Under the pieces are notes generated by a model. The model saw only the letters and a program-made list of their open reading frames with translations, made no database searches and had not been told where the DNA came from. The position numbers were made by a program, and so were the translations under genes. This document shows, one piece after another, positions 20,198 through 46,498 of a stretch of DNA of 64,000 bases (position 1 is the stretch's first letter; each line of letters begins with the position of its first letter). This DNA comes from Linum tenue (taxonomy: Eukaryota; Streptophyta; Magnoliopsida; Malpighiales; Linaceae): assembly GCA_946122785.1 (NCBI GenBank), contig CAMGYJ010000010.1:32033608-32097607 (forward strand), read 5' to 3'.

Positions 20198-20214
20198 CCC
20201 CGGCAACGGCGCCA
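20198..20214 (-). other. Primer binding site of Athila-2 (tRNA-Asp)
   Basis: The minus strand reads TGGCGCCGTTGCCGGGG, complementary to the 3' end of plant tRNA-Asp. This is the usual Athila primer site. It lies six bases from the LTR. Confidence 0.9.
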
Positions 20215-20220
20215 AAAACT

Positions 20221-21140: not shown

Positions 21141-21955
21141 AATTTCAAACACCTGCCCAACTTTTAAGCACTACCTCCAACACTCACATAGACTTTAGCA
21201 GCAACAGCAGAATATATATAAAACCACTCTGTGGAACCTTCTAAAAGATGCAACAAGGGTGATTTTTTCATTATAGACCAAAAGAAAGGATAACACACGG
21301 CTCAAAGGGGCTGACTAGGGGATATGACACATCAGGACAGTCAGTTTTGGGCGTGGGCTAATCCTATGCCCCCATCATCTTAGCTAGTGACAACGTGAAT
21401 GCTACACATCATGGAAGAGGGATCTATCGCACAAGAAAGAAACGAGCAGGCTCAAATCTCACATGGCTACCTATATGCTCTATCTCACATTCTGATACCC
21501 TGAACTAGATGCATAAACGACTGTCAAGAACAAGTAATCAGATCAAGTCAGATCAAGTCACAGTTGGCAAGCAAACAGTTGAAAAACTGAACCCCTACAT
21601 CGTTCTACTGCACATCTCAGTCCTCATCATAGGTTGTCCCAGTCGCAAACAAGTTGTCATGCATTAATCCGAAAACCAATCAATTCATCCATCAAAACAC
21701 AGTGCCAATATGATCAAACAGCAGTACTTGGAGCCCTCAAATCGTAAGATTCGGATAGTGGACTAGGCTCCAAGCACCATCATAAATATTCCAACCGATA
21801 CAAAACATCCCCCACACTTAAGCACGACATTGCCCTCAATGGAGTAGAGGGAAAGATAAGGGGAACGATGTTACCGGGTAAGAACACTGCTGGGGGACTG
21901 GAAGTGGACCAGTTAGCGAAAAACGAATGGGGTAGTGGACGATGCTGCACAAATC
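21141..21955 (-). other. Athila-1 3' non-coding interior between Athila-2 and CACTA
   Basis: Contains CCCACACTTAAG..CGACATTGCCCTCAATGGAG, the block also found in the Athila-2 3' region. No ORF of note. Confidence 0.7.
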
Positions 21956-26053: not shown

Positions 26054-27104
26054 CTGAAGGTAAAATAATAGTCTCATAAGTTGTACTTATACTGTCATCG
26101 GTGTTACTACTCAATTGAATTTTATTTAATAAGTTTTACTCAAACTTTGACCGTTGTATTACGCAGGTACCTAGGTATATGGCAGTAGGTATGCATTTTG
26201 GATGCTCAAGGACCTTTGGAAGGCTGTTAGCTTTTGTTATTTATTACTCTCTTTTGAAAGACGAACATATGTCGCTTTGGAAGACTTTGTTTTGGTGTCT
26301 GGATGGATGGATCAGTAGGTTTTTGGAACAGATTGTAACTATGAATGATGTAGTTTTTTATTTCGGCAATGAATGATGTAGCTTTTGATACATTTGAATG
26401 ATGTACCGTTTTCTTTATGGTATGAATAGTATCAGATTTGGAAAATAGGTCGTCATAATAATGCCCACAGGTTGTCATATATGCATCAGGTTATGACAAA
26501 CAAGTTTAATCAGGACAAATGTCAGATGGAGTTTGAGTTTAAATATTATGACAAGCACATGGCTTTGTCAAAATAGGTTTGCTATGACAAACTATACATT
26601 TGTCACAACAACGTAGCAAAAGTGGTAACTATCGTGACAAAAATTAATAACATATTGTGACGAAGCATTTCTGTATTTTGACAAAACATTTTGTCATAAC
26701 AAGATGCCTGTTATGACAAAATGTGCACGGCGTGCCACTGGAACATGTTGTGACAAGATGCCTATTTTTTGTCATAATAGAGCTATTTCGACGAGGTAGT
26801 TTTGACCAACGGTATGACAAATATTTTTGTCATAATAGAGCTATTATGACAAATGTAGGATCTGTTGTGACGAACGTCGTTGTCATAATATCCCAAAATT
26901 GTTGTAGTGATCGAACACCAGAAACACACTAGCACACTGGCGTTAGGGATAGTGTTAGCCCAGACGGCTACTTCAAACCACAAATGAAAAACCAAAAACA
27001 AAAACAAACGACACAAAGTTCAAGCTCCGCACACATGGAGCAAACACACAAAAGTCTAAAAAGAAAGAAAAAACAAACACACTGAGACGGGCAACGAGTA
27101 CAGC

Positions 27105-27683
27105 CTACTCGTCGCCAAGATCGTCGAGATCGATGTCGTTCATGAACGCATCATCATCAGCAGCGCCAGCCGCACCGTCATGTGGAGGGGAGTCATCCCA
27201 GGGAGTCCTCCAGACAGGTGGATCGCCCGGAATCAGCTGAAGCAGGTGCTGCTGAACCTCCTGCATGCGCCGGGAACGACGCTTCTCCCGCTCGATGTGG
27301 GCGAGAGTCACGCCCTGCTGAGTCTGGATCGTGTCCAGCCTGTGCCGGTACTCGGCCTGATCTGCCGCGTACTGCTGCTGGAACTGCATCTGCTGGTCGA
27401 GGAGCAGCTGGTTCTGGATCCTCAGCTGCTCGAACTGCTGGGTGAAGTAGTCCTGGCCCTGGAAAGTGGAGCTGCTACCCCCAAAATGGAAGTCAGTCTG
27501 TGGGGGATCATCAGCAGCATCAGCAGCAGCATCCACCTCCTCGGGGTCCACCTCATCGTCAGCCTCCTCCTCGGGCTCCGCGGGGATAGGAGGCTCCGGA
27601 AATCCCTCGACCCACTGAACACCGTTCCTCTCCCGCAACAGCAGCATCTTCCCGATCGTCGCGCTGCCAAAAATGGGGGTCTC
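27105..27683 (-). pseudogene. Athila-1 ATHILA-domain ORF, C-terminal part
   Basis: The C-terminal 190 residues of the ORF that starts at 38114. It has an acidic patch (EEEADDEVDPEEVDAAADAA), a Gln-rich coiled coil (QFEQLRIQNQLLLDQQMQFQ) and an acidic tail ending DDLGDE. It is separated from its N-terminal part by the Tekay insertion at GTCTC. Joining the parts over a single GTCTC gives 1332 nt, an open frame of 443 codons plus stop, so this ORF was intact when Tekay arrived. Confidence 0.88.
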
Positions 27684-30200
27684 TGTGAAACCCTTACTTT
27701 ATATTACAAAACGAAACAGTAAAATACATCAAGTTTAAACATTCTCGGGCCCGAGCTCTACATATATTTTTTTTTCTCAAACTTCAAACCATAATTTACA
27801 TTTTCATCAGAGTCAAAACAGAAAACCGGGGAAGTCCGCTTTATTACAAAATCCACACAACATAAAACATTTAAGGAGTTCGGAGTCCTCCGCCCACCTC
27901 ATGGCTTCCCTTCACGCTTGAGTCCCGATATCTACAGTACAGACCTTACTTCTGATCTTGATCTGAGGAAAAATGATGACGAAGGATGAGTCGTCGCTCA
28001 GTGAATAAATTCTAAGCTCAGATCGACATCAATACAAAAACAGTATTGGACAGAAACACCCTAGCACATAACAGGACTTAAGCTGTTTATTCTACTTTTC
28101 ATTCCACAGGATCAATCAAGTTCACATGTTCACATCTCATAGTCAAAAACACATAAAACAGATGACAGATAGAGGCATTTTACTTATACAATTTCACTTT
28201 CAAACTTGCTAAATGATATACTCCTCGGGTAGTACAGTAGTGGAAGGCTGCAGGATAACCATGTACAGCCATTAGATAACTGGAGTACCGCGGGACAAAA
28301 CCCCATCCGGTACGAACAGGATTGCACAAGGCACGAAACAGGAGTGCTCAAGGCACGAAACAGGAGTGCTCAAGGCACGAAACAGGAGTGCTCGCACCAA
28401 CAGGAATATCGCGGGACACAACCCGGACCGATACAAAACAGGAGTCGCCACGGGATTACCCCAGCCCGGCTAACTGAACAGAACAGGAGTACCGTGGGTC
28501 GTCACCCAAACGGCACGGTGCGAAGCACGAGCGCTCAAACAGGAGTATCGTGGGGTTTAACCACATCGATACAAACAGGACACACTACTGTACCGAGGTA
28601 TCATAAAACCTTTTTACTTATTCTTAAGTATTCACCTCTTTTCATTAATAGTTCACTTAGACACTATAGGCTCAAAAGCATTCATAGTGCTTTTGTACCC
28701 TCAGTCACAACAGAATGGAAAGTAAGCTGAAGAGCTTACTCCGAGTTATTCAAGCAGAACAGGATTAGTAAGCCTAATGGCTCACTCCAAATCTGAACAG
28801 ACAAGACGGGTTCGCAAGTTCGACTACTTGCTCATAATCCGCACAATAAATCAACAAAATGTCTTTCCACATCTCATTCACAATTCATGCATTTCCAACT
28901 TCATACCAAATGCAGATAATGAATAAACACAAACAAGCCATATCACATAGCCATATCATTTCCCATAAATTCCCATATTATACCGGAGCCTCTTCATGAC
29001 CCCGATATGTATTCGGGCCGCTTCATGACCCGAATACTGTGATTATGTTGAGGTAGATCTAAGATTAGAATCTACTCACAGCTTTGTCTTCACTCGGCTA
29101 TGCCCTTGCCTTTGGATGAGCCCCCGGCTTGATCCTTACCTTTATGTACAAGATTTCCAGGTTATTCAAGCACCAAGACACGTATACAATCATCATAATC
29201 ATGGTTATATTCATGCATGTCAATAAGACCACAAGGGAAGTCATACGATTGTACACTTTACCATGCTTCCTCATTTTGATCATTTCTCCCTTGATACTTA
29301 ACCAAATCCGTTGATTCTTGTTGCTACTGAAACTATATTCATAGGGCTACAACATATCCAAATTTCAGACCATTTGGATCAGCCTTTTGATCCCAGCAAT
29401 CATTTTAACTTGACATTTCAAAACTGTCAACAACTTTCTTTTCACTTTAAAACCAACTCTCCTTCTTCTAACAATTGTTCCTGACCACTCCGACATCAAA
29501 ACTACATTCTGAACGGTCCATTCGAAGAACCACCTATACTTAACCTCATACCAAATTTATAGAACGATCCAACGGCGGATTCGCACAGGATCTTACCTCT
29601 ATCTGCTGTCCTGCTACAGAAAAACAGTATCGCACCCCTTCTGTCCAGCGACTTTCCTCGCTGAACCAGAGATCATATCGATGATCCCAACGGTCAAATC
29701 GTAGCCAAAGAAGTATGAAACCCAACCTACAAATCTCAGGACGATCCAACGGTTTGATTGTCCGGAATCGTCCTTCTCACAGGCTGTCTCGCTGCTGGAC
29801 GGAAATTGGCAGCACCCCTTTTGCCTCCTTCTTCTTCCTCTTCCTCTCCTTGATATGCTTTTCTTTCTAGCTTTCACTCTTTGTTTCTGAAAGGGGGGTG
29901 GTGGTTTTTGAGGTGGTGAAACCAGGTGAAAGGAAGAGAGCAAGAGAGAGACGTGGGAGAGAGTGAGGGGAAGGGATGAGAAGGAAATGAGAGATAAGAG
30001 GATGGGCAGATTTTATCTCCCTTATCTAGAATTCTCCATCCCTCCAAATTGTCTATTTGGCCCTAAACTTTCCTTCACTTGCAATTAAGTCTAGCACTTC
30101 CACTATTCACTTTCTTTTTGGTTCAAAAGACTAATTTTTGTAACCCAATCACAACCACGTAATTATAACGTAATACTAGTACGAGGGCAGGGATGTTACA
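27684..30200 (-). repeat. 3' LTR of Tekay element
   Basis: 2517 bp, TGT...ACA. It includes three 22-bp tandem units (CAAGGCACGAAACAGGAGTG at 28336-28395) and a set of hairpin modules at 28285-28572, listed separately. Confidence 0.96.
28285..28572. repeat. Hairpin module cluster in Tekay LTR
   Basis: At least four units share the layout stem-GGG-loop-CCC-stem, usually preceded by ACAGGAGT or a close variant. Outer stems are GTACCG/CGGTAC (28285-28290 with 28308-28313), TATCG/CGATA (28407-28411 with 28429-28433), ACCGTG/CACGGT (28491-28496 with 28514-28519) and GTATCG/CGATAC (28545-28550 with 28567-28572). The stem bases change together between units, which points to conserved structure. The same cluster is in the other LTR at 35441-35728. 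Confidence 0.6.
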
Positions 30201-33200
30201 TTTCCTCCCCTCTAAATAAAATTTCGTCCCGAAATTTACCTTGAAACAAGTAGGGGTATTGTGCTTTCATGCTTTCTTCCATCTCCCACGTGGCTTCTTC
30301 TCCAGTGTGACTTTTCCAAATTACTTTCACCATAGGAATACTTCGATTCCTAAGTTGTTTCACCTTTTGGTCCACGATCTCTTTTGGTTCCTCCACATAG
30401 CTTAGATCTTTCTGGACCTCAATCTCATCTGGTTCCAGTACATGTGACGGATTCGATCGGTATCTTCGAAGCAAACTCACATGGAAGACATCATGAACTT
30501 GAGACAATTCTGGTGGTAAGGCAAGTCGATAGGCTACCGGACCTATCTTTTCCAGAATCTCATAAGGTCCGATATACCTCGGACTTAACTTACCCTTCTT
30601 CTGGAATCTCAAAACACCCCTCCAAGGAGACACTTTCAAAAATACTTTCTCTCCACTCTGAAATTCCATCTCTCTTCGGTGGATATCAGCATAGCTCTTT
30701 TGCCGGTTTTGTGTGGCCTTCAATCGGCTTCTGATCACTTTAATCTTATCCACTGTCATCTGAACGATTTCAGGTCCCTCCAATTGCCGTAACCCTTCCT
30801 CATCCCAGCACACTGGGGATCTGCATTTCCTTCCATACAGAGCTTCGTATGGAGCCATACCAATACTACTATGGTACTGGTTGTTATAAGCAAATTCAAT
30901 CAGTGGCAAATGTTCATCCCAAGAACCTTGGAAATCCAGTACACAAGCTCGCAAGATTTCCTCAAGAGTGAGGATTGTTCGCTCGGATTGACCATCGGTC
31001 TGGGGATGAAAAGCGGTTGAAAAGTTCAGACGAGTACCTAGTGCTTCTTGCAAACTCTTCCAGAATCGAGAAGTGAACCTCGGATCTCTGTCAGAGACGA
31101 TGGATACTGGTACTCCATGTAGTCTCACTATTTCCTCCACATACTTCTTTGTCAGTAACTCTAGCGAACAACCCCATCTAATGGGTATAAAGTGAGCCGA
31201 CTTTGTCAATCGGTCCACAATGACCCAAACGGCGTCGTTCTTCTTCTGAGTCCTAGGTAGACCATAGACAAAGTCCATGGTAATCTTTTCCCATTTCCAT
31301 TCTGGAATGGACAGTGGTTGCAATTTTCCCGCTGGGGCTTGATGTTCAGCTTTCACTTTCTGACATACCAGACACGTCAAGACATGTTCAGCCACTTCTT
31401 TCTTCATCCTTGGCCACCAATAATGAGATCTCAACGAACGGTACATTTTTGTCGTTCCGGGATGCATTGCATAAGGAGAGGAATGAGCTTCTTCCAAAAT
31501 CTCCCTTCGCAATTCATCCACATTTGGAACACAAAGTCTTTCATTTAGTGTCAGAACGCCATCTCGGAATGTGAATTTAGTTTCTTCCCCTTTACGACTC
31601 TTATCAATAATCTTCCTCAATTCAGGGTCTTGATCCTGAACTTTAATAATTCTTTCTCTCAGAATTGGTCGCACTTGTAAAGTGGCCAATAACCCTCCTG
31701 TGGAATTCATTTCCAATTCAACACTCATAGCTCTCAAAGCAATCAAATTTGCCATTAAACCAGTCTCCTCATTTTTAGTACGATGCGTGGTCTTTCGACT
31801 CAAAGCATCTTCCACAACATTTGCTTTGCCTGGATGGTATTCGATGGTACACTCGTAATCTTTCAACAACTCTAACCATCTCCTTTGCCTAAGATTTAGC
31901 TCTTTTTGCTCCATCAAGTACTTGAGACTCTTATGATCAGTAAAGATCTGAAAAGTCTCACCGTACAAATAATGACGCCAAATCTTTAAGGCGAATACCA
32001 CAGCCGCCAGTTCTAAATCATGAGTCGGATAAGATTTCTCATACGGTCGTAATTGCCTGGAAGCATAAGCAATTACTTTACCATGTTGCATGAGAACACA
32101 TCCTAACCCTTGATGGGAAGCATCACTGTATACCACATAACCTCCAGTTCCTGAGGGAAGGGCAAGAACCGGTGCAGTGGTTAACTTCCGCTTCAACTCT
32201 TCGAAACTGGATTGACATTTATTATCCCATATAAAAGATTGCTCTTTCCTCAGTAACTTTGTCAATGGTGCAGCAATCAGAGAGAACCCCTCAATGAACC
32301 TTCTGTAGTATCCGGCCATGCCAAGGAAACTTCTTAGTTCAGGTATATTTTTCGGTGGCTCCCATTGTATCACTGCTTCTACTTTCCTTGGATCCACCTC
32401 TATACCTCTCTCAGACACCACATGGCCCAAAAATACTACTTGATCCATCCAAAATTCACATTTGCTGAACTTAGCATACAACTGCTTTTCCCTCAGAATC
32501 TGCAGTACGATTCTCAAATGCTCCATGTGCTCTTCTTCACTTCCAGAATACACTAGAATATCATCAATAAAGACGATCACAAACTTATCTAGATATTCCT
32601 GAAACACTCGGTTCATCAGTGCCATGAACACAGCTGGAGCATTTGTTAACCCGAAAGGCATAACGAGAAATTCGTAATGCCCATACCTAGTACGAAAGGC
32701 TGTCTTCGGTATGGACTCATCCGCTACCCTTAATTGATGATAACCTGATCTTAGATCAATCTTGGAAAAGACCCTCGATCCTTGTAGTTGGTCAAATAAA
32801 TCATCAATCCGAGGTAATGGATATTTATTCTTAACCGTTAACTTGTTGAGCTTCCGATAGTCAATACACAGACAAAAAGTTCCATCTTTCTTCTTCACAA
32901 ATAATACCGGAGCGCCCCAAGGGGAGACACTAGGTCTAATAAACCCCTTATCTAGCAACTCTTGAAGTTGCTCCTTCAGTTCTTTAAGTTCAAACGGAGA
33001 CATCCGGTACGGAGATACAGAGATCGGAGCAGTGCCCGGTATCAGTTCAATAGTGAAATCTATTTCCCTTTCCGGAGGTAATCCTGGCAGTTCCGAAGGG
33101 AACACATCCAGGAACTCCTTCACAACCGGAACATTTTCAGGTTTCAATTCCGGTTTGCCCTCAGTCACATAAGCCAGATACACTTCACAGCCTTCCTTCA

Positions 33201-33231
33201 TCAAACTCACCACCTTGGTGGCCGAGACTAG
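30196..33231 (-). CDS. pol: Tekay pol: RT, RNase H, integrase, chromodomain
   Basis: About 1011 codons are open in one frame, in phase with gag-protease upstream. RT motifs are [23 protein letters not shown] and the catalytic FIDDILVYS. RNase H shows [13 protein letters not shown] and [10 protein letters not shown]. Integrase has the zinc-finger pattern [20 protein letters not shown]...CLVCQ and core motifs [17 protein letters not shown] and QSERTI. The C-terminus has [12 protein letters not shown], then [16 protein letters not shown], a chromodomain-like fold typical of Tekay chromoviruses. It has no ATG near its 5' end and is expected to be made as a fusion with gag. The TAA at 33232-33234 separates the two. 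The last codons overlap the polypurine tract. Confidence 0.95.
30201..30216 (-). other. Polypurine tract of Tekay, overlapping the end of pol
   Basis: The minus strand has an A/G run ending AGAGGGGAGGAAA before the LTR TGTAAC. It also encodes the last residues of pol (RGEE), and the pol stop codon lies just inside the LTR. Confidence 0.85.
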
Positions 33232-34731
33232 TTAACTAGGCACCACCTGTCTAGTCCCTCGAAAAATCACATTCTGACCATCTGGTCTTTCGAAAATTAC
33301 TTCCTTAGTATAACAGTTCATTACGGCTCTATGTTGGCTTAACCAATCCATTCCTAGAATTATATCGAATTCAGTCAGCACTAACCTCAATAAGTTAGCT
33401 GGCAGAATAGTTCCAGCTAGACTTATTGGGGCATCAGGATAGGCATATTCAATCACTACGGTATCTCCTACTGGGGTTTGAACTATTACATTCTTGTTCA
33501 ACATTTCATAGTGCACAGGCAACCCACGTGAGAATGCAGAAGATATGAATGAATGAGTGGCACCAGGATCAATCAACGCATAAGCGGTAAGATCGTAGAT
33601 AAGAACCGTACCAGTAACGACCTCTGGAGAGATGTCAGCCTCCCTCCTAGTCATAGCAAAGGATCGTGGCTGCACTTCACCCCGACTGCTCTGTCCACCC
33701 TGACTTTTGCCACGATTATTACCACCTCTTCCTGATACTCTCACTGAACCTCCAGTCCTTCTGGACCCTTGAATTGTGGTCTGGGATCCAGCAGGCCTGG
33801 ACTCTGACATGTGGGGACAATCACGGAGGAAGTGGCTGGTGTCTCCACATCGGAAACACCCACCAGTCACCCTCCTACAAACACCCACATGCTGATTCCC
33901 ACAATGTGGGCAAATAGGAGCTGGGCCTGCACTTCTCCGCTCCTGTCCGGGGTAACTGGCCACTGGACGTGAAATCTTCGGAATCTGATTAGGTCTACCC
34001 CCGAATGAGTTCCCAGCACTCGAGGAACCCACATTCTTCCACGTCCTCTTCCTTCCTTCAGCCATTTGTGCTCCCATTTCATTCACCAAATCCTCTGCTC
34101 TCATGGCAGCCTCTCTCAAGGTGGCAAGATCAGTCGTCTCTGATTTTGCTACTATCATCTTGATCTGGGGATTCAGGCCTTGCTCATAGCGGTTACATCT
34201 AGCTCGTTCAGTAGGTACCAACTCCATCGCGAAGGTCATCAAACGATGGAAAGTGGCATCATACTCTTTAACAGTCTGCCCCCTTTGCTCTTTCAGGTCC
34301 AGAAACTCTTTCTTCTTCCTATCCACATACAGATCAGGCACATATTGCTTACGGAATTTCTCAAGAAATTCCGCCCAGGTATACCGAATTGTACGATCCT
34401 GAGCCCCGGGTACGGTCAACCACCAGTCATAAACATCAGACCTGAGCAGGTAGTACATATACTCCACTCTTGCTTCATCAGGACACTCAAGGAGGTTAAA
34501 GATTCGTTCCATCTCCTTGATCCAATCCAGAGCATCTTTAGGGTCAATAGCCCCTTTAAAGAACTCAGCCCCCATATTCCTCAGCTTTTCAAAATCCTTG
34601 ACATAAGGATTGGCTCTATTGCGGGACTCAGCATTATTTCCATTAAAATTAGAACCTCCAGCATTAGGATTCCCGTGAGGTTGCGGATCTGCTCCTTGAC
34701 TGAACTCCACAAAAACAAAATCCGGAGTCAA
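33232..34731 (-). CDS. gag: Tekay gag-protease
   Basis: 499 codons. The N-terminal half is a retrotransposon gag domain (KFRKQYVPDL, FLDLKEQRGQTVKEY). A cysteine-rich stretch includes CPHCGNQHVGVC and the CCHC knuckle CFRCGDTSHFLRDC. The aspartic protease follows with ALIDPGATHSFIS and DIILGMDWL. It ends RQVVPS-stop at TAA 33232-33234, while the downstream frame ([16 protein letters not shown]) continues in phase. Relatives usually read straight through here, often with a Cys at this position, so the TAA is probably a mutation, although a readthrough stop cannot be excluded. The primer site and 5' LTR lie directly upstream. Confidence 0.95.
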   Translation of the reverse strand: MTPDFVFVEFSQGADPQPHGNPNAGGSNFNGNNAESRNRANPYVKDFEKLRNMGAEFFKGAIDPKDALDWIKEMERIFNLLECPDEARVEYMYYLLRSDVYDWWLTVPGAQDRTIRYTWAEFLEKFRKQYVPDLYVDRKKKEFLDLKEQRGQTVKEYDATFHRLMTFAMELVPTERARCNRYEQGLNPQIKMIVAKSETTDLATLREAAMRAEDLVNEMGAQMAEGRKRTWKNVGSSSAGNSFGGRPNQIPKISRPVASYPGQERRSAGPAPICPHCGNQHVGVCRRVTGGCFRCGDTSHFLRDCPHMSESRPAGSQTTIQGSRRTGGSVRVSGRGGNNRGKSQGGQSSRGEVQPRSFAMTRREADISPEVVTGTVLIYDLTAYALIDPGATHSFISSAFSRGLPVHYEMLNKNVIVQTPVGDTVVIEYAYPDAPISLAGTILPANLLRLVLTEFDIILGMDWLSQHRAVMNCYTKEVIFERPDGQNVIFRGTRQVVPS

Positions 34732-34823
34732 AATCAGTAATTAGTCACTTCCCCGTCAAATCATTTAAGTATTCCCAGTAAAATCTCGTTTAAAACGTTT
34801 GGTATCCACGGGATCATATCCCA

Positions 34824-34835
34824 GCTCTGATACCA
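34824..34835 (-). other. Primer binding site of Tekay (initiator-Met tRNA)
   Basis: The minus strand reads TGGTATCAGAGC, four bases from the 5' LTR. Confidence 0.93.
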
Positions 34836-34839
34836 AAAA

Positions 34840-37356
34840 TGTGAAACCCTTACTTTATATTACAAAACGAAACAGTAAAATACATCAAGTTTAAACATTC
34901 TCGGGCCCGAGCTCTACATATATTTTTTTTTCTCAAACTTCAAACCATAATTTACATTTTCATCAGAGTCAAAACAGAAAACCGGGGAAGTCCGCTTTAT
35001 TACAAAATCCACACAACATAAAACATTTAAGGAGTTCGGAGTCCTCCGCCCACCTCATGGCTTCCCTTCACGCTTGAGTCCCGATATCTACAGTACAGAC
35101 CTTACTTCTGATCTTGATCTGAGGAAAAATGATGACGAAGGATGAGTCGTCGCTCAGTGAATAAATTCTAAGCTCAGATCGACATCAATACAAAAACAGT
35201 ATTGGACAGAAACACCCTAGCACATAACAGGACTTAAGCTGTTTATTCTACTTTTCATTCCACAGGATCAATCAAGTTCACATGTTCACATCTCATAGTC
35301 AAAAACACATAAAACAGATGACAGATAGAGGCATTTTACTTATACAATTTCACTTTCAAACTTGCTAAATGATATACTCCTCGGGTAGTACAGTAGTGGA
35401 AGGCTGCAGGATAACCATGTACAGCCATTAGATAACTGGAGTACCGCGGGACAAAACCCCATCCGGTACGAACAGGATTGCACAAGGCACGAAACAGGAG
35501 TGCTCAAGGCACGAAACAGGAGTGCTCAAGGCATGAAACAGGAGTGCTCGCACCAACAGGAATATCGCGGGACACAACCCGGACCGATACAAAACAGGAG
35601 TCGCCACGGGATTACCCCAGCCCGGCTAACTGAACAGAACAGGAGTACCGTGGGTCGTCACCCAAACGGCACGGTGCGAAGCACGAGCGCTCAAACAGGA
35701 GTATCGTGGGGTTTAACCACATCGATACAAACAGGACACACTACTGTACCGAGGTATCATAAAACCTTTTTACTTATTCTTAAGTATTCACCTCTTTTCA
35801 TTAATAGTTCACTTAGACACTATAGGCTCAAAAGCATTCATAGTGCTTTTGTACCCTCAGTCACAACAGAATGGAAAGTAAGCTGAAGAGCTTACTCCGA
35901 GTTATTCAAGCAGAACAGGATTAGTAAGCCTAATGGCTCACTCCAAATCTGAACAGACAAGACGGGTTCGCAAGTTCGACTACTTGCTCATAATCCGCAC
36001 AATAAATCAACAAAATGTCTTTCCACATCTCATTCACAATTCATGCATTTCCAACTTCATACCAAATGCAGATAATGAATAAACACAAACAAGCCATATC
36101 ACATAGCCATATCATTTCCCATAAATTCCCATATTATACCGGAGCCTCTTCATGACCCCGATATGTATTCGGGCCGCTTCATGACCCGAATACTGTGATT
36201 ATGTTGAGGTAGATCTAAGATTAGAATCTACTCACAGCTTTGTCTTCACTCGGCTATGCCCTTGCCTTTGGATGAGCCCCCGGCTTGATCCTTACCTTTA
36301 TGTACAAGATTTCCAGGTTATTCAAGCACCAAGACACGTATACAATCATCATAATCATGGTTATATTCATGCATGTCAATAAGACCACAAGGGAAGTCAT
36401 ACGATTGTACACTTTACCATGCTTCCTCATTTTGATCATTTCTCCCTTGATACTTAACCAAATCCGTTGATTCTTGTTGCTACTGAAACTATATTCATAG
36501 GGCTACAACATATCCAAATTTCAGACCATTTGGATCAGCCTTTTGATCCCAGCAATCATTTTAACTTGACATTTCAAAACTGTCAACAACTTTCTTTTCA
36601 CTTTAAAACCAACTCTCCTTCTTCTAACAATTGTTCCTGACCACTCCGACATCAAAACTACATTCTGAACGGTCCATTCGAAGAACCACCTATACTTAAC
36701 CTCATACCAAATTTCTAGAACGATCCAACGGCGGATTCGCACAGGATCTTACCTCTATCTGCTGTCCTGCTACAGAAAAACAGTATCGCACCCCTTCTGT
36801 CCAGCGACTTTCCTCGCTGAACCAGAGATCATATCGATGATCCCAACGGTCAAATCGTAGCCAAAGAAGTATGAAACCCAACCTACAAATCTCAGGATGA
36901 TCCAACGGTTTGATTGTCCGGAATCGTCCTTCTCACAGGCTGTCTCGCTGCTGGACGGAAATTGGCAGCACCCCTTTTGCCTCCTTCTTCTTCCTCTTCC
37001 TCTCCTTGATATGCTTTTCTTTCTAGCTTTCACTCTTTGTTTCTGAAAGGGGGGTGGTGGTTTTTGAGGTGGTGAAACCAGGTGAAAGGAAGAGAGCAAG
37101 AGAGAGACGTGGGAGAGAGTGAGGGGAAGGGATGAGAAGGAAATGAGAGATAAGAGGATGGGCAGATTTTATCTCCCTTATCTAGAATTCTCCATCCCTC
37201 CAAATTGTCTATTTGGCCCTAAACTTTCCTTCACTTGCAATTAAGTCTAGCACTTCCACTATTCACTTTCTTTTTGGTTCAAAAGACTAATTTTTGTAAC
37301 CCAATCACAACCACGTAATTATAACGTAATACTAGTACGAGGGCAGGGATGTTACA
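34840..37356 (-). repeat. 5' LTR of Tekay element
   Basis: 2517 bp, almost identical to 27684-30200. Differences noticed: GGCATGAAAC at 35531 versus GGCACGAAAC, TTTCTAGAACG near 36713 versus TTTATAGAACG, and CAGGATGATCC near 36895 versus CAGGACGATCC. Confidence 0.96.
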
Positions 37357-38114
37357 GTCTCCCCCTCCTTGGTGCACCCCTGCAGTGAGAGGCCGAAGAA
37401 GGTAACCAGGCGGGTGATGAGGGGGGCGCAGTGGAGGCTCTTCAGCTCTGTGGCCGTCTTCTCGAATGTCTTGGCCACCACCGAACCCAGGTGGAGAGGA
37501 TGGCGGCGCTGGCGGATCGAATCGAGGAAGTACAGGGGCCTCTTCGTGATGGCGCCGGCGCTGTCAGATGCAGGAGTGTAAGACTTCGCCAGCAGGTGAT
37601 GGAGAAGTCGGTACTCGATCCGTAGGGTAGAGGCCTTCGTCCTCCCAGACTTGAAAGGACGCGTCTGGCCAGGCTGAGCGAGACTGGTGTACAGCCTCCT
37701 GAAGTCCACCTCCGGTGGCTCAGTTACCTCGGTGACGTAGTCCGCACTGTCGTCAAGGTCGAGGTCGAGAGCCTCAGCCAGCTCGTGATAGCTCAAGGAC
37801 CGGGGGACACCACCCAGCCTGAATTGGACGGCTGTACTGTCATGGTATCTGGTCGTGGAGTTGTGCTTGAAAGTGGTGTAGAACTCCCACACCGGCTCGT
37901 AGTAGACCGTCTCGCAGATCTGGAACAGACGGCGCCATGCGGTGTTGGCGACCACGGCGGAGAGCTGCTTGTAGCAGTGCAATCGCCGAAACTCCCGTTT
38001 GGACCAGCAATGGTGGGCGCCAAACGGGGTTTCCACGACCTTCTTGAAGCGCTCTCCGGTGGAGCCCCTCCTGAGATCCCGGATGAACGGGTGCTGGAAA
38101 TTAGGTTGTGCCAT
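37357..38114 (-). pseudogene. Athila-1 ATHILA-domain ORF, N-terminal part
   Basis: Starts at ATG 38114 (MAQPNFQHPFIRDLRRGS) and runs open to the Tekay insertion. Composition and position after pol match the ATHILA-domain ORF (called env-like in some Athila elements). It includes WEFYTTFKHN and RYHDSTAVQFRLGGVPRSLS, typical of that domain. I see no clear signal peptide or membrane span, so an envelope role is not supported. A splice-acceptor-like TTTTGCAG ends four bases before the ATG, suggesting expression from a spliced mRNA. The C-terminal part is at 27105-27683. Confidence 0.85.
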
Positions 38115-38120
38115 TGCCCT
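38115..38120 (-). promoter_or_regulatory. Candidate splice acceptor before the ATHILA-domain ORF
   Basis: The minus strand reads TTGTTGTTTTGCAG then GGCA then ATG. A pyrimidine-rich tract with CAG right before the start codon is a good 3' splice site. A possible donor CCAG|GTTTGA lies at 38614/38613, giving an intron of about 490 bp. This is prediction only. Confidence 0.5.
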
Positions 38121-38932
38121 GCAAAACAACAACCCAAAGTGGAACCAAAAGAGCCAAAGAAAAGGTCAAGCCCACCCCCACACTTAAGAACAGGAAGCAG
38201 CCGAACCATGGTTTCATCCATAGTTCGGGGGTCAAAAACTCGATAAATCAAGCATAATCTGGGTGGGGGTGCACATTCACAAGAAAGTAGGCAACTCAAG
38301 GTTCACATCCATAGCAAATACACCCACAAACTACATCATTAAGGGCCCCAACCGGTGGCCACAACATGGCATGGAAAACAGGCATTTCATCGAACACCTT
38401 GTGTGCACTATTAAGTTAAGCATGAAATTGGCCAAATTCTTGCACACAAGGGCTCAAACAAGCAAATGGGACATTGCCCAACATAATTCAATCACATCCC
38501 ATGCATTCCCCTCAATCAATTTCACACAAATCACAGGATTCAATAAGATTCTCTAACATACACCCTACACACTCAATTCTCCACAATTAACATAGTTAGG
38601 GACAAAATCAAACCTGGAGACTCAAGTAGAGGTGCAGGGGATGATGAGGGGAAGACAAGGGAATCGACGAAATGCCGAAAATCTGGCCGGAAATGCTCGT
38701 CGGAGCCTCGCCGGATTCTCGCCGGAAATCGCCTCCGGCGACAAAAATGTCGCCCAAACTCGCTCAAACTCGGGGGATAGGCCGCTTTGGGTGTAGAAAG
38801 AGTGGGCTTGGTGTTGGTTTGGTGAAAAAAATACCCAAAGTGGCCGGAAAAATCGAAATAGGGTAGTTTTTGCGCGGTTTTCCGGCGAGGGGGAGAGGTT
38901 TCCGGCGAGAGTTTTGATTTTCTGACCACTAT

Positions 38933-39283
38933 GGCCGTGCACGGCCATTTATATAGCCCGTGCCTCGGCTGCACGGGCAAGGCGCACGGCCGTGCACGGG
39001 TTGCTTTTGCCCGTGCAGGCCGGCACGGCCTGGCCGAGGATGTTGCACGGCCGTGCACAAGGCACATTTGGCCGTGCAACTATCGCCGAGAGCTCGCACG
39101 GCCAGGGGGTGGTACCCGCACGGCCGTGCGAGGCGTCATGTTGCCCGTGCAAGGCGCACGGCCTGGCCGAGGATGCTGCACGGCCGTGCGTTGTGCACTT
39201 TTGGCCGTGCACTCCTGGCCGAGAGCTCGCACGGCCAGGCCAGGCTAGGCGCACGGCCGTGCAAGTTGATTTTCTGGCCGTGC
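38933..39283. promoter_or_regulatory. GCACGGCCGTGC palindrome array inside Athila-1
   Basis: Five exact GCACGGCCGTGC palindromes and many half-sites lie in 350 bp between the end of integrase (39469) and the ATHILA-domain ORF. The module is the same as in the LTR U3 arrays. On the minus strand the array is followed by a TATA box and then the leader of the ATHILA-domain ORF. Part of it is itself a tandem duplication (GGCCTGGCCGAGGATG occurs near 39025 and 39159). Confidence 0.55.
38948..38956 (-). promoter_or_regulatory. Candidate TATA box for an internal Athila-1 promoter
   Basis: The minus strand reads CTATATAAA within GGGCTATATAAATGGCC, at the downstream edge of the palindrome array and about 830 bp before the ATHILA-domain ATG. 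Transcription would be expected to start near 38920. The sequence and spacing fit a plant core promoter; activity is untested. Confidence 0.5.
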
Positions 39284-39468: not shown

Positions 39469-42127
39469 CTAAGGGTCCTCGAGCTTGATCAGCAGCTCTG
39501 CGCGCTCGACAGCACCTCCCAAGTACAACTTTAGGAGATGGCCATTCACCTTGAATGGCTCGGTTTGAGCATTGCTGATCTCCACCGCACCATGCGGGAA
39601 AACTTGGGTCACCGTGAAAGGACCCGACCACCTAGAACGGAGCTTGCCCGGAAAGAGTTTCAGGCGTGCATTAAAGAGCAGAACACGATCACCTACCTGA
39701 AACTCCTTCGGGCCCCTCAACCTAGCGTCGTGGAGACGCTTGGTGCGCTCTTTGTAGAGCAGGGTGTTCTCGTAAGCGTGGTAATGCCACTCCTCCAACT
39801 CCAGCAGCTGCAACTTACGTTCTATACCTGCAACACTCAAATCCATGTTTAGCAGCTTAATGGCCCAGAAGGCCTTGTGCTCTAGCTCTACCGGCAAATG
39901 GCACGCCTTCCCATAGACAAGCCTATAGGGAGAAGTGCCAATCGGGTTCTTATAGGCAGTCCTATACGCCCAGAGAGCATCATCGAGCTTGGTGGACCAA
40001 TCCTTGCGGGACTGATCCACCGTCTTTTCAATTATACGTTTTAACTCCCGGTTCGTCAGCTCGGCCTGCCCATTTGACTGGGGGTGATAGGCCACCGACA
40101 CCTGATGCTTAACGCCATAGCGAGAGAGGAGTTTAGTGAATTGCCCCTGAAAATGGGTTCATCTATCACTAATAATGGCGCGAGGTGTCCCGAACCGGGA
40201 GAACAGCTGCTTCAGAAATGAGCAGACCCGTCTTGCATCATTGGTGGGCATGGCTTGAGCTTCTGCCCACCTCGAGACGTAGTCCACTGCAACCAAAATG
40301 TACAGATTGCCAAAAGATGGAGGGAATGAGCCCATGAAATCGATACCCCAAACATCAAAAATTTCACAAATAACAGATATATGTTGGGGCATCTCATCCC
40401 GGGCAGAAATGTTACCTGACCTTTGGCAGCGGTCGCACTGGCGTGCGAAGGTGTCTGCATCCTTGAAGAGCGAGGGCCAATAGAAGCCCGACTGTAGCAC
40501 CTTCCGCGCCGTGCGGGTTCCTCCATGATGACCGCCAGTGGGGTCCTTCGTGACATTGAGACAGGATATCTCCCATCTCATGCTCCATGACACAGCGCCG
40601 GATCACGCCATCTGCTCCGATTCTGAAGAGGTAAGGATCCTCCCAGAAGTAGTGCTTCAGATCGGAGAAGAACTTGCGCTTCGCATGAGTAGCCATCCCC
40701 TTGGGTAACTGCTTGCCCACCAGATAATTGGCAAAGTCAGAATACCAAGGGGTCACGCTGTCCACCAGGGTCATCGCCAGCAATCGCTCACCCGGGAAGG
40801 AGTCGTCGATCTCTTCCTCGAAGTTGTCCACCGGAGGGGCTTCCAACCGTGAAAGATGATCTGCAGCAACATTCTCGGCTCCCTTCTTGTCCCGGATCTC
40901 GATATCAAACTCCTGCAGCAGCAAGATCCAGCGGATGAGCCTAGGCTTTGCATCAGCCTTGCTCATCAGATAACGAATCGCCGAGTGGTCAGTGTAAACC
41001 ACCACATGAGAGAGCACCAGATAGGGTCGGAACTTGTCAAATGCATACACCACAGCGAGGAGCTCCTTCTCTGTGGTGGTGTAGTTCTCCTGTGCATCGT
41101 TCAAGGTCTTCGACGCGTAGTAGGTGGGCTGGAAGTGTTTCTCGCGTCTCTGACCCAGAACTGCTCCGACTGCATAGTCACTCGCATCGCACATCAGCTC
41201 AAAAGGAAGAGACCAGTTAGGAGTCACCATGATAGGGGCATGGGTAAGCTTCTCCTTCAGAGTCTCAAATGCAGCTGTGCACTCTGGAGTGAACTGGAAT
41301 GACGCATCCTTCTCCAACAGCTTGGTCAACGGCAGGGCAATCTTCGAGAAGTCTTTGATGAAGCGCCGGTAAAAGCCTGCATGACCCAGAAAGCTGCGAA
41401 TCCCCTTCACAGAAACGGGAGGAGGTAGCTGACTGATCGTCTCAATCTTTGCGCGATCTACCTCAATCCCCTTCTTGGAGATCTTGTGCCCAAGCACGAT
41501 ACCCTCACGAACCATGAAATGGCACTTCTCCCAGCTGAGTGCCAGATTCGTCTCCTCGCACCTCTTCAGAACGAGTTCCAGGTTTTGGAGACAGTGAGTG
41601 AAGGAGTCTCCATATACCGAGAAATCATCCATGAAGACTTCCATGATCTCTCCAACCAGTCGGTCAAAGATAGCCAGCATGCATCTCTGGAAGGTCGCCG
41701 GTGCGTTACACAGCCCAAAAGGAATCCTCCGGTAAGCAAAAGTGCCGAAGGGGCAAGTGAATGTGGTCTTCTCCTGATCCTCCGGTGCAATAGGAATCTG
41801 GAAGTACCCAGACATGCCATCCAGGAAGCAATAGAACTCATGGCCCGCCAACCTCTCCAGCATCTGATCAATGAAAGGTAGGGGAAAATGATCTTTCCTG
41901 GTGGCGTCGTTCAGGCGCCGGTAATCGATGCAGACTCTCCAGTCGGTCACGGTCCGCATCGGGATCAACTCCTTCTTCTCGTTCGGGACCACAGTCATCC
42001 CGCCTTTCTTCGGGACCACCTGAGTGGGGCTGACCCACTTGCTATCAGATATAGCAAAGATGATCCCTGCATCCATGAGCTTCACGATCTCTGCCCGGAC
42101 CACTGCCTCCAAGTTAGGGACAATCTC
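39469..42127 (-). pseudogene. pol: Athila-1 pol: RT, RNase H and integrase, frameshifted
   Basis: RT is complete with VCIDYRRLN, FLDGMSGYFQIPI and the catalytic FMDDFSVYG. RNase H follows ([25 protein letters not shown]). A one-base insertion near 40545 (a run of four C) shifts the frame inside the integrase zinc finger, and the frame resumes as [16 protein letters not shown]...CDRCQRSG. Integrase core motifs WGIDFMG, IISDR and [10 protein letters not shown] are present, but a TGA at 40159-40161 replaces the Gly after IISDR. Upstream, a one-base loss near 42125 separates this region from gag-protease. The C-terminal region ends at 39469, as in Athila-2. It is dead as written. Confidence 0.93.
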
Positions 42128-45009
42128 CTCTGCGGCTGCCTGACTGGCTTAACCTCATCCTCCATCAAGATTCTGTGAGAGCAGAAGGATGGGCTAATGC
42201 CTCTGATGTCAGTGATCTTCCATGCCATGGCCCGGGCATACTTCTGCAACAGAGCCACCAACCTGCTCTTCTGCTCGGGGGTCAGATCCGAGCTGATAAT
42301 AACCGGGAGCTTATTCCCCTCCCGGAGAAATGCATACTCCAGATGAGATGGGAGGGGTTTAAGCTCCAACTCTGGTGGCTCCTCCAATGATGTAGCGAGC
42401 CGGGGCGAGATGGGAATCGGCTTGAATGGCATCTCTCGCCCCTCGCTCGCAGCCTCGTCCAGCTCCGCAAGCTGCTCCGCCAGCTGCATATCCTGTGATG
42501 CCTGTTCCCCTCGCAAAAGACAACGCTCAAGGAAATCATCAGTACCCGCACTCGTGATGGCGAGTGCGGTTTCAAAATCAGCAACAACATCACAGTAATC
42601 AAGATCATCATGGAGCTGGGGGTGTTTCATATTATCAGAAACAGAGAAGGTGATTTGTTCACCCCCAGCTCTCAAAATCAGCTTTCCATCATTAACATCA
42701 ATCAGTGCCTTGGCGGTGGCGAGAAAAGGTCTACCCAGTATCAATGGCACATCAACATCCTCATTTATGTCCAAAATCACAAAATCAACAGGATATAAAA
42801 ATGGCCCTACTGCGACTATCAAGTCCTCTGCTATACCCCTAGGATGCACAATAGATCTATCAGCAAGCTGGATGCTCATCCTAGTTTTATTGGGTTCACC
42901 TAGGCCTAGCTTCTTAAACAGTGAATATGGCATGACATTAATGCTAGCGCCTAAATCCGCCAAGGACTTCCCTACATGCAAACTACCAATCATGCAAGGG
43001 ATAGTGAAACTCCCTGGATCTTTTCGCTTCTCTGGTAGTTTGTTCTGCAGGATGGCAGAACACTCCTCGTTTAGCATCACCGTAGACAGCTCCCCAAGCT
43101 TCCTCTTGTTGGTGAGGAGATCTTTCATGAACTTGGCATACTTGGGCATCTTCGATAATGCCTCCACGAAGGGCATGCTAATATTCACCTGCTTCAGCAT
43201 TGCCATGAATTTGGCAAACTCAGTCTCCAGTCGGTCTTTGTGCAACCGAGTAGGAAAGGGAAGCTGTGGTACATACTCCTTCACCACTGGTTGCGGTTTA
43301 GGAGCAGGCACCTCAACCTCCTTTTCCATTTCTTCCTGATTAGCTGGAAGTGCTGAAGCAGGGGTCTCTCTCTCCTCTGCCCGAACAGGTGGATCGGCAG
43401 TCACCTTGCCACTCCTGGTAGTGATGGCACTCAAGTTTTCATCCTGGTTCTGCGGGTGAGGGATAGTCTGACCAGGCAAGGTACCTGGAGTCCTCCGAGC
43501 AACAGCCTGGGCAACACCACCAAGCTGGGTCTGTATATCTCGCAGCACAGCCTGTGTGTTTCTCTGACCAGCTTCTAGCTCCAAGAACTTGCCAGAAGCT
43601 TTCTCCATGAACTGCTCAATGTTAGTGAACTTACTCGCACTGGAGGTGGCCAGAGAACCCACCAGATCTCTCAGTTCCGCCATCGGGTCAACCTGTGCTG
43701 GGGCTGCCCCTGCCTGTGGAAATGTTCGTGCCTGCGACTGAGGTGGAACTGGCCCCTGTCTGGGCTGGTAGAGTGGCTGCTGTTGCTGCTGAAATTGCCC
43801 CTGTCTGGGCTGGTATGGAGGCCTCTGGAAACCGGGAGGTCCCTGGGGAGCTGGTGGTCTGGGATTTGGCCCAGCCCAAGAAAAGTTAGGATGCTGGCGC
43901 CACCCCTCATTATAGGTGTTGCTGTAGGGGTCAAAGCGCCTGGCATTCCCGATGAAATCCACCTGCTCCTGGGGAGTGGACGACTCCCTCATCACCTGAC
44001 AGTCCTCCACGGTGTGATGAGAGCTCTCACACCACTGGCAGTGCATCGCCTGCGGCTGTCCTGTACCTGCAATCAAACCAGAACGATCGATAGCTGAAAC
44101 CAGCTTCGATACCACCTGCACCAAATCAGATGATTGGGTGCCCACAGCATGCACACCCCGTCCGGGTGCTCGACACGATCTCCTGGCAGTGCCCCAGTCA
44201 TAACCGTTCTCCGCCATCTCCTCAAAGAGTTGATTCAGCTGTGGCGGGGTTTTGGTCAGCATGTTCCCGCCACAAACCGAATCGATCAGCTGCTTGTCCT
44301 CCGGGAAGAGGGCGTGGTAGAAGGTGCCCACCTTGAACGCATCGTTGAAACCATGATTGGGACACCTGAGAAAGAGGCCGGTGTACCTCTCCCAAGCATC
44401 CCTAATGGTCTCATCCTCATCCTGAGAAAAGTGTGTAATCTGCTTCTAGAGATCAGCTGTCTTGGATGGAGGATGGTAGCGGGTGAGAAACTTGTCCGCC
44501 AGGTTGGCGAACGTGGTGATGGAGCACGGAGGTCGAGTGTCTAGCCACTCCTTGGCCTGCCCCTCCAGAGTGAATGGGAAGTACCTCAGCTGGATGGCAT
44601 CTGCTGGTACCCCATTGATCTTGATTCCATCGATGAGCTCGTGGAATCGCCTGAGATGTGATCGAGGGCACTCTCCCTCCTTACCACGGAACACTACTGA
44701 ACCGCGCAGCATGGTGATCACGGAGGTGCTCACCTCAAAGTTGTTGGCTGGGACCTAAGGGTGTTGAATAGGTGACTTCATGTCCGCAGCCCTAGCGGTC
44801 CAGTAGGATCCCATGGTCTGCTCCCCGGGGATCAAATCGTTGTTCTGCGGATCACCCATCTCTCCTTCTTCTTCTTCTTCTCCCAACTGCAGCTGTGTTA
44901 GCGCTTCCTCCGCAGCCAGTCGCGCCTTTAGAGCCCGCTTGAAGTTCCTACAAGTTCGTTCAAGCTCCTGGTCAAGTGGTAGTAGATCCCCCGGCTGACT
45001 ACGGGTCAT
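42128..45009 (-). pseudogene. gag: Athila-1 gag-protease with two stops
   Basis: Starts MTRSQPGDLLPLDQELERTC. The frame is broken by TAG at 44755-44757 and TAG at 44446-44448 but otherwise stays in phase to about 42125. Gag shows FTLEGQAKEWLDTRP and KFLTRYHPP, then CQWCESSHHTVEDC and a Pro/Gln-rich linker. The protease region has CMIGSLHVGKSLADLGASIN and LILGRPFLATAKA, the Athila-type DLGAS active site. Without readthrough only a short gag peptide could be made. Confidence 0.93.
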
Positions 45010-45147: not shown

Positions 45148-45153
45148 AAAACT

Positions 45154-46498
45154 TGACACGCTAAAACACAACACCTAACAATGGCCAAGTGTAACCAATG
45201 AAAGGGACTGCAGTAACAGGCAAGTTTAATTATCAACCCGGGGTCTAGATCTACTGCTTACTCCGTGATTCTCTATTATCTAGCAAACTAATTCAAGTGA
45301 TTATTGTGAAAAGTAAAAGCAACAAGAAAGCAGTAATTTGTTCGGGTTTCTAAAGCAGGTAAGAGTCACTCGGGATTGAGTCCCCCTAGCCCCTTAGTTA
45401 GGTTCAATTGCAATTCCCTGGGTTGATTTACTGTTGATTAGACTGCGGAAGATCCGACAGTAGCTTGGAATCTCTTAAGCTGACCAAGCCCTCTCAGTCT
45501 AACTACCCGGCAGACGACTAGTCTTCACCGGGATAGAAAGCTGAGGCTATGAACACAGAACTCCACTACTGGCGCCAAGAACACCAGTACAAAGCAGTCA
45601 ACTGGCTAACTCTCGTATAGCCAATCTCCTACTATCGAATGAAGAGGCTCTAACAACCTAATCAAATTCTATCTATCTCAGGTTGAAGCAGAAATTGAGA
45701 AAAGCTGATCAGACTCAAATCAATTCAATAAACATGCGTCATTCGATTAAAATCAAACAATAATATCATCCCAAGTCATTACAATCAAATCCCTAACACA
45801 AGGAACTAGGGTTCTTCATACCCAAGTGAGAGAAGGGTTCTACTCCATAGAGAGAGAAGAGAAAACAAGAATCGGATTAGTCATACTCATAACGATGAGG
45901 ATAATATGCTCCGGGACGATGATTTCCACTCCTATGACGATCTACAGGCTCGATTCGATGAAATCCAGCTCTAAGACAGCTTCTAGGGTGTGTTCTTCGC
46001 ACTTTCTCTCTCTAGGGCTCTGTTTTTGCTCTCAAAACACGATTCTTCCACTTTTGGCTCGGATTAGGCTTTAAAACCGGTTTCCCCGAGTTGCACGGCC
46101 AGGTGCACGGCCGTGCACAACACCATTCTGGCCGTGCACCCTGAAACGCGCTGTTTCATTTAGTTCGAACTCAGACATCTTGCACGGCCAGGTGCACGGC
46201 CGTGCAAGCTTCAGGGCCTGCCCGTGCATGTCCTCGGCCAGAGGCGCACGGCCATAATTGCACTTTGCACGGCCGTGCGTCTCCATGGTCTGGCTGTGCG
46301 GCTCCCCAAACAGCTCGCCATCCGTCCGTTCTTCGTCCAATCGACCCCAGACTCGCTCCTAAGCCTTCATTCACGTACTAGGACCTGAAATATCACAAAC
46401 AAGCACAACCTAGCGTGAAATCGGCCTAAAACACGAGAATCAACACCTCAAACGGTGTAAGAACGGGGGTAAAAACATGTGTAAATGACGGTCTATCA
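45154..46498 (-). repeat. 5' LTR of Athila-1
   Basis: 1345 bp, identical in length to 13151-14495 and different at about ten sites. It ends against GAACT (46499-46503), beyond which the DUF247 pseudogene resumes. Confidence 0.95.
46093..46300. promoter_or_regulatory. GCACGGCCGTGC palindrome array in Athila-1 5' LTR
   Basis: Three half-full-half modules with all three full palindromes exact (the first at 46105-46116). Half-site starts lie 12 bp before and 25 bp after the start of the first full site. On the minus strand the array precedes a TATA-like TTTTAAA at about 46073. Confidence 0.55.

What the first reader, a model, noticed from the sequence alone, without database searches (positions are those of the whole stretch)
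38933..39283. Internal palindrome array plus TATA box and splice acceptor: a candidate second promoter in an Athila retrotransposon
Seen: between integrase and the ATHILA-domain ORF of Athila-1 lies a 350-bp array with five exact GCACGGCCGTGC palindromes and many half-sites. At its downstream edge on the minus strand is a consensus CTATATAAA (38956-38948), then a ~830-bp leader with a possible donor (38614/38613) and a strong acceptor directly before ATG 38114. The same palindrome module occupies U3 of the element's own LTRs. Known: Athila elements carry an extra ORF after pol whose expression route is poorly understood. Inference: the LTR-type module has been reused as an internal promoter, so the ORF would be made from its own spliced transcript.
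Basis: partly seen in the sequence, partly recalled or inferred. Interest (0 to 1): 0.8.

Follow-up and report, generated by a model that had tools for sequence, protein, structure and literature searches.

The report
Matched palindromes at retrotransposon's two promoters
A plant jumping gene carries clusters of the same short mirror-image DNA word in front of its main promoter and in front of an apparent second, internal promoter for an extra gene, and in related families both clusters have changed spelling together, which suggests that one partner protein reads both.

Summary
The palindromes are not local: 11,838 genome sites against 1 for the reversed pattern. Splicing leaves a genomic footprint: 12 copies, ten of this family and two of a diverged one, lack the predicted intron exactly. 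Array, TATA, leader, intron and ORF recur in three Athila-like families. The strongest new result: each family has its own prevailing half-site (GC-, AC- or TT-ACGG), and the LTR U3 array and internal array carry the same one in 18 of 19 elements read. Between two families the same half-site base mostly switched in place in both arrays, while core and neighbouring base stayed, without the spacers being clearly shared. Best reading: an internal promoter with a spliced leader, sharing a trans-acting factor with the LTR. No transcript start was seen. Precedents: the Athila6A ENV promoter and Sirevirus palindromes. Bold reading: the ORF product is the factor.

The parts
45154..46498 (-). 5' LTR of the host element (TGATAG...GTGTCA); PBS-like TGGCGCCGTTGCCGGGG at 45147-45131
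   Evidence: 99.3% match of 45150-46505 to 13147-14501; sequence read; the PBS label is recalled
46105..46278 (-). U3 palindrome array, 3 exact palindromes; the region 46080-46330 holds 12 half-site matches, 11 of GC type, upstream of GGTTTTAAAG
42082..44331 (-). ORF with aspartyl protease match, gag-protease part
   Evidence: PF13650
39469..42112 (-). pol: RT and RNase H matches in 40412-42112; no family match in 39469-40101
38957..39283 (-). internal palindrome array: 5 exact palindromes, 22 half-sites, all GCACGG
38948..38956 (-). TATA box CTATATAAA, directly after the last half-site of the array
   Evidence: TATAWW 321-344 nt before the donor in 43 of 49 copies examined, the window's own included
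38614..38925 (-). inferred leader exon (start = TATA + 30, inferred), without any ATG
38119..38613 (-). intron, 495 nt, GT-AG; precisely absent in 10 copies of this family
37365..38118 (-). second exon and N-terminal part of the ORF (ATG 38114-38112), PF20167-like
26752..27683 (-). approximate rest of the ORF region beyond the nested insertion
   Evidence: relatives match piece 26700-27683 right after the ORF piece
27684..37364 (-). nested LTR element that interrupts the ORF (LTRs 27684-30210 and 34840-37364)
13151..14495 (-). 3' LTR with U3 array (14191, 14264 exact); purine tract AAGTGTGGGGGAG at 14510-14498

Best explanation
The host is an Athila-like Ty3/gypsy element with two Pol II promoters. 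One is in the LTR; the second lies between integrase and the extra ORF. SHOWN by sequence: both have an array of half-sites (NN-ACGG / CCGT-NN), often fused into ACGGCCGT palindromes, upstream of a TATA-like box; downstream of the internal one come a leader, a GT-AG intron and the ORF; copies that lack exactly this intron show that it is removed from RNA which is later reverse transcribed; family-specific half-sites match between the two arrays. INFERRED: the internal TATA starts a short capped transcript near 38925 whose spliced form makes the ORF's ATG the first start codon in the window's family; one trans-acting, dimer-like DNA-binding factor reads both arrays, so that both promoters are switched on together, and a change in its specificity forced the same change at most half-sites in both arrays.
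For: Chance excluded locally and genome-wide: GCACGGCCGTGC 11,838 vs 1 reversed, ACACGGCCGTGT 8,581 vs 7, GTTACGGCCGTAAC 66 vs 0. Splice footprint: 12 places with the joined exons, reversed control 0, junction read base by base in one; intron-less G1 copies need 4 changes on the tree, 4-4 in bootstraps, though starred branches force only 1. Intron 494-495 nt in all 34 G1 and G3 copies where both ends were found. Half-site type: G1 LTR 83 GC of 95 matches, 1 AC, 0 TT, and internal 154 GC of 160 (7 of 8 elements sampled had the LTR in place); G3 AC-rich in both; G2 TT in both, three elements. In-place switch G1 to G3: internal core same 0.93, inner flank 0.96, outer flank only 0.23, spacer 0.61; LTR core 0.98, inner flank 1.00, outer flank 0.16, spacer 0.56. 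Spacers of the G1 internal array match a G3 internal array (56 vs shuffled maximum 26), not clearly its own LTR (16 forward; 25 inverted against 23). ORF pN/pS 0.35, pooled over pairs of 39 copies. Element B, which has no match to the ORF in the self-comparison, has an LTR array but no internal array.
Against: No expression data. Intron-less copies arose from RNA that starts upstream of the internal promoter. The ATG-free leader is not unusual for one copy (about 1.1 expected, chance about 0.25) and fails in family G2, where 3 of 5 leaders hold an ATG. The LTR TATA is weak (TTTTAAAG) in the window's family. One of 19 elements (L075/L082) mismatches by majority: internal 12 GC/7 AC, LTR 4 GC/10 AC. 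Copies within a family are not independent, so 19 elements amount to three families. The three G2 elements were found by their TT palindrome; in L057 both arrays hold it, so only L050 and L051 test the LTR blindly, and 2.1 kb between L063 and L050 was not read. Element B is a deletion derivative and may have lost array and ORF together.
Confidence: 0.74

Rival explanations
1. Retrovirus-style expression only: the ORF is translated from a spliced RNA that starts at the LTR; the internal array is not a promoter.
For: Intron-less copies derive from RNA that included sequence upstream of the array; acceptor next to the ATG; splicing of plant env-like RNAs is reported for Bagy2 (PMC7264820, first part read).
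Against: No copy was found that joins the acceptor to another upstream exon: 0 exact matches with non-T at -5 against 79 with T, all 79 listed being TGCAG, TACAG or TCCAG (exact matches only); the small intron leaves all of gag-pol ahead of the ORF; a TATA box and array sit just before the leader.
Confidence: 0.14
2. The arrays are kept alike by gene conversion or template switching between LTR and internal region, not by a shared reader protein.
For: Half-site types match within elements; a paper reports recombination among distantly related Athila elements (PMC2410132, start of abstract in the listing).
Against: Half-site-masked spacers are not clearly shared between LTR and internal arrays but are shared between internal arrays of two families (the inverted G1 score of 25 slightly exceeds the shuffled maximum of 23; the G3 pair tested came from two different elements); the switch is confined to one half-site base.
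Confidence: 0.1
3. The palindromes act in RNA, as hairpins for silencing, packaging or stability.
For: The array folds far better than shuffles as RNA (z -8.3), and palindromic changes keep pairing.
Against: Both arrays lie upstream of a TATA-like box and the inferred start; many half-sites are single; a palindromic array folds well whatever it is for.
Confidence: 0.06
4. Host transcription factors read the arrays, and the families simply exploit different host factors.
For: Sirevirus palindromes were matched mainly to stress-related host recognition sites (PMC2829016 section 9). No library of plant binding sites was on hand here.
Against: All three families live in one genome, and the half-site changes together at the LTR and the internal promoter, next to a conserved ACGG core, which fits a partner that changes with the element.
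Confidence: 0.45

Closest known systems
Arabidopsis Athila6A ENV ORF promoter (Panda et al. 2016, PMC4977677; passages seen)
   Same: Internal promoter for the ORF after pol and an intron in the annotated element; nearly all elements keeping that promoter are targeted by RDR6-RdDM.
   Different: The passages seen give no palindromes, no match to the LTR and no intron-loss copies; figures were not available.
Sirevirus repeated motifs (Bousios et al. 2010, PMC2829016; section 9 and passages seen)
   Same: Palindromes, nearly all with a CGG-CCG core, upstream of the LTR TATA and upstream of ENV; elements without ENV lack the linker copies; offered as support for an internal ENV promoter.
   Different: Ty1/copia; the authors call the motif Sirevirus-specific. 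Here it is Ty3/gypsy, and the lock-step half-site change between families is shown.
VANDAL/VANC anti-silencing systems (PMC5735166 and PMC10398659; abstracts seen)
   Same: Repeated short targets in noncoding regions that differ between related elements in one genome.
   Different: A demonstrated element-encoded binder there; no binder is shown here.
Foamy virus Tas with LTR and internal promoter (PMC8670036, PMC4929722; starts of abstracts in a listing)
   Same: Two promoters; in the virus one viral protein acts on both.
   Different: Animal virus, no homology tested or claimed; used as analogy only.
Bagy2 and other env-like plant elements (PMC7264820, first part seen)
   Same: Extra sense ORF after pol; splicing.
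   Different: Here the ORF shows no membrane segment and the intron is a small leader intron.

Membership tests
Athila lineage of Ty3/gypsy elements | LTRs, PBS, RT and RNase H domains, extra ORF after pol | tested here: met
Athila lineage of Ty3/gypsy elements | Athila ORF-1 domain PF03078 | tested here: not met
   only PF20167, below cut-off, as the main match; PMC6317226 gives PF03078 in 16% of Athila elements (passage), so it is not required
Athila lineage of Ty3/gypsy elements | integrase domain of element A | tested here: inconclusive
   39469-40101 has no family match; element B pol has rve
Internal ENV promoter as in Athila6A | promoter-like elements and intron before the ORF, conserved | tested here: met
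Internal ENV promoter as in Athila6A | transcript start at the internal site | not testable with these tools
   no RNA data
Sirevirus palindromic repeated motifs | palindrome with CGG-CCG core in U3 before TATA and before the ORF | tested here: met
Sirevirus palindromic repeated motifs | element belongs to Ty1/copia Sireviruses | tested here: not met
   RT_RNaseH and RVT_1 matches of element A, rve in element B; that these are of Ty3/gypsy type is recalled. Works like, is not a member
Retroviral envelope gene | transmembrane segment in the ORF product | tested here: not met
   highest 19-residue hydropathy 1.40 in 7 relatives examined; the usual threshold of 1.6 is recalled
Self-encoded sequence-specific activator (VANC- or Tas-like) | family-specific target motifs | tested here: met
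Self-encoded sequence-specific activator (VANC- or Tas-like) | encoded protein binds the motif | not testable with these tools
   both structure models were poor (mean pLDDT 44.5 and 38.8), so no fold search was run

The most novel reading that the evidence does not exclude
The extra ORF, called env-like for decades, encodes a sequence-specific self-activator or anti-silencer: an N-terminal domain, a long predicted coiled coil (dimer, hence palindromes) and an acidic tail (DDDAFMNDIDLDDLGDE-like). It would bind its own family's half-site at both the LTR and its own internal promoter, a positive loop like foamy virus Tas or VANC, and each new family arises by a joint change of protein and sites.
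Probability: 0.3. Interest if true: 0.88.

Novelty: new variant of a known kind. Interest (0 to 1): 0.7.

Why it matters
How Athila-type elements express the ORF after pol, and what that ORF is for, is an old open question. Here the genome itself gives a splice footprint and a natural experiment: three families in one host whose two promoters carry matching but different binding sites. That points to a specific, cheap binding test of the ORF product. It also shows that the palindrome arrangement reported as Sirevirus-specific exists in the other LTR superfamily.

Tried and rejected
Structure route: two AlphaFold2 jobs (16 and 25 sequences) gave mean pLDDT 44.5 and 38.8; no fold search was run on them. 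The predicted coiled coil (residues 330-411 of P0002) comes from the first, poor model. Plant mobile domain relationship: none by profile comparison with the window's own ORF at 61589-63586. RNA structure in the whole intron: z -1.4; 120-nt pieces between -2.5 and 2.2. Acceptor joined to another exon: none among exact matches. Methylation-type decay as the cause of the GC to AC change: rejected, since the CG-containing core stays at 0.93-0.98. ATG-free leader as a general rule: not borne out in G2. L045's own LTRs were not found in the 10 kb fetched around it. A negative control with another flank (TGACGGCCGTCA) did not complete. Count of intron-bearing copies by donor pattern did not complete. 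Aligning the G2 LTR array to the G1 array position by position failed (core identity 0.44), so the in-place switch is claimed for G1/G3 only. G1 and G3 LTR spacers alone do not exceed shuffles once masked (21 vs 22); their alignment leans on flanks and half-sites. Rows dropped: L081 and L085 (no LTR array found) from the correlation; L024, L025, L026, L029, the ten places L035-L044 and L076 (the window served as reference); L071 from the internal table; L090 from the totals; eight of 54 sequences gave no count (three without TATA, five without the exon-end word), of which four G2 ones were counted.

Full report
SETTING. The window lies in a 692 Mb plant genome of 17 contigs, at least ten of them large. 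All 17 proteins found with the ORF are from Linum trigynum, the nearest 96% identical, so a flax relative is likely (inference). On the minus strand an Athila-like element runs from the LTR at 46498 to the LTR ending near 13151; its two LTRs are 99.3% identical. A second LTR element sits inside its ORF (27684-37364, LTRs 99.8% identical), and a deleted relative, element B, lies at about 14838-21142.

OBSERVATION. Fifteen exact palindromes in the window against none in 100 shuffles, and 11,838 in the genome against 1 for the reversed pattern, exclude chance. In the internal array 22 of 22 half-sites read GC-ACGG; in the 5' LTR region 11 of 12.

FAMILY G1, CONSERVATION. A search with the ORF gave 147 scored matches out of 6,062 candidates; 30 were fetched as loci, one of them the window itself. 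Over these, pre-array, array, TATA, leader, intron and ORF align in one order; parts are missing or matched only in part in L019, L024, L025, L028, L029 and L033, and L026 lacks the intron. TATAWW stands 321-344 nt upstream of the donor in 43 of 49 copies of G1 and G3 examined, the window included; four lacked it and two had no readable exon end. An intron of 494 or 495 nt was found in all 34 copies where both ends could be read; 33 have the donor CAG|GTTTGA, L069 has TAG|GTTTGA. The ORF shows pN/pS 0.35, pooled over pairs of 39 copies.

SPLICING FOOTPRINT. L026 has the leader joined to GGCAATGG with the intron gone to the base. A genome search for the joined exons found 12 places, the reversed pattern none. 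Ten are G1 copies, L026 among them, with pre-array and array sequence still upstream, in L040 only part of the array. Two (L045, L046) belong to a diverged family, G2, with the same exon end; intron-bearing G2 copies show the matching donor TCTCCAG|GT and the acceptors GCAG|GAAAATGG (L050, intron 268 nt) or GCAG|GACGATGG (L057, 299 nt). On a tree of 39 ORF sequences the intron-less state needs four changes, 4-4 in the bootstraps, but firmly supported branches force only one. These copies began as spliced RNA that contained upstream sequence, so splicing occurs in RNA that starts before the internal promoter, presumably at the LTR. The acceptor is not seen joined to another exon: 0 exact matches with non-T at position -5 against 79 with T, namely 76 TGCAG and one TACAG, as in the intron, and two TCCAG, as in the junction.

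TWO PROMOTERS, ONE CODE. Relatives of P0018 form family G3 (93 matches scored of 7,239). Ten upstream regions and ten 3' flanks were read. Their half-site is mostly AC-ACGG in both the internal array and U3, with two internal arrays (L071, L075) mostly GC; G2 uses TT-ACGG in both, in three elements. For G1 I took eight elements by their ORF, not by their palindromes: seven had the 3' LTR at the expected place, with 83 GC, 1 AC and 0 TT among 95 matches in U3, and 154 GC, 5 AC and 1 GT in their internal arrays. By majority type 18 of 19 elements match; L075/L082 does not. The 19 include one G3 pair taken from neighbouring near-identical copies (L069 and L077), and three G2 elements that were found by their TT palindrome. 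Within G3 the GC share of the internal array follows that of the LTR (Spearman 0.78, p 0.023, eight of ten elements; two had no LTR array; relatedness not corrected). Families, not copies, are the independent units, so this is three concordant cases plus a within-family trend; the small permutation value ignores that and is not used.

IN-PLACE SWITCH. Aligning G3 to the window, internal half-site cores agree at 0.93 and the inner flank at 0.96, but the outer flank at only 0.23, with spacers at 0.61; in U3 the figures are 0.98, 1.00, 0.16 and 0.56 (nine of ten internal, eight of ten LTR). So one base per half-site changed at most sites in both places while its neighbours were kept. With half-sites masked, the internal arrays of G1 and G3 still match each other (56 against a shuffled maximum of 26), but the internal array does not clearly match the LTR array (G1: 16 forward, 25 inverted against 23; G3, internal L067 and LTR L080 of different elements: 18 and 16 against 25). 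Copying between the arrays is therefore not the likely cause; selection by a shared reader is. Element B, without a match to the ORF, has the U3 array (20 half-sites) but no internal cluster, like the ENV-less Sireviruses in PMC2829016; as a deletion derivative it may have lost both at once.

LEADER. From the inferred start to the donor there is no ATG in 45 of 45 G1 and G3 copies measured; about 1.1 is expected per copy, so one copy alone is unremarkable, and copies are related. In G2 three of five leaders (L046, L050, L057) hold one ATG, against the simple picture. The window's intron holds 21 ATGs. In G1 and G3, splicing an internally started RNA would make the ORF's ATG the first.

THE ORF PRODUCT. 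It matches PF20167 below cut-off, shows no membrane segment in seven relatives, has an acidic tail of net charge -10 to -12 in the last 30 residues of five of these seven (P0003 and P0019 end differently), and a helix at 330-411 in a poor model. This fits a nuclear dimer with an activation tail at least as well as an envelope, but it is suggestion, not evidence of binding.

LITERATURE. PMC4977677 (passages) annotates an ENV ORF promoter and intron in Athila6A. PMC2829016 (section 9 and passages) reports palindromes with a CGG-CCG core in Sirevirus LTRs and before ENV, and calls them Sirevirus-specific. PMC6317226 (passages), PMC7264820 (first of three parts), PMC1142308 (passages), PMC3276544 (passages) and PMC11410651 (passages) do not describe this arrangement in what I saw. 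VANC papers were seen as abstracts, foamy virus papers as listings. Searches combining Athila with internal promoter, env splicing, palindromes or self-activation listed no title or abstract start that reports it; most listed papers were not opened, the library is partial, and Wright and Voytas 2002 was not held.

VERDICT. A real, family-wide arrangement. Splicing is shown by its genomic footprint; the promoter is strongly suggested; the shared reader is inferred from lock-step change; its identity is open.

Noticed in passing
window 38119-38613 and relatives: The intron is the best conserved stretch measured: 98.7% within G1 (ORF 96.6%, leader 94.6%) and 88.8% to G3 (leader 80.2%), with fixed length 494-495 nt. 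No RNA structure signal was found. Why an intron is kept better than coding sequence is unexplained.
   Followed up: partly
G000:C5:85482233-85512430: Four G3 ORF copies repeat with a 9.6 kb period, as if elements share LTRs in a tandem row.
   Followed up: no
window 46060-46090 against 38948-38956: The TATA-like box of the LTR promoter is weak in G1 and G3 (TTTTAAAG, GTTTTTCAG), while the internal TATA is close to consensus.
   Followed up: no
L046: An LTR end like that of the window's lineage abuts the internal array of a G2 element, so it was inserted into or beside the array.
   Followed up: no
window 38614-38920: The leader exon folds better than shuffles as RNA (z -4.6).
   Followed up: no
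L021 (G000:C2:21065876): The one of 79 exact-match copies with the acceptor TACAG instead of TGCAG or the TCCAG junction.
   Followed up: no
window 58571-60403 and 61589-63589, plus strand: A DUF247 ORF and a plant mobile domain ORF lie beside the nested elements.
   Followed up: no
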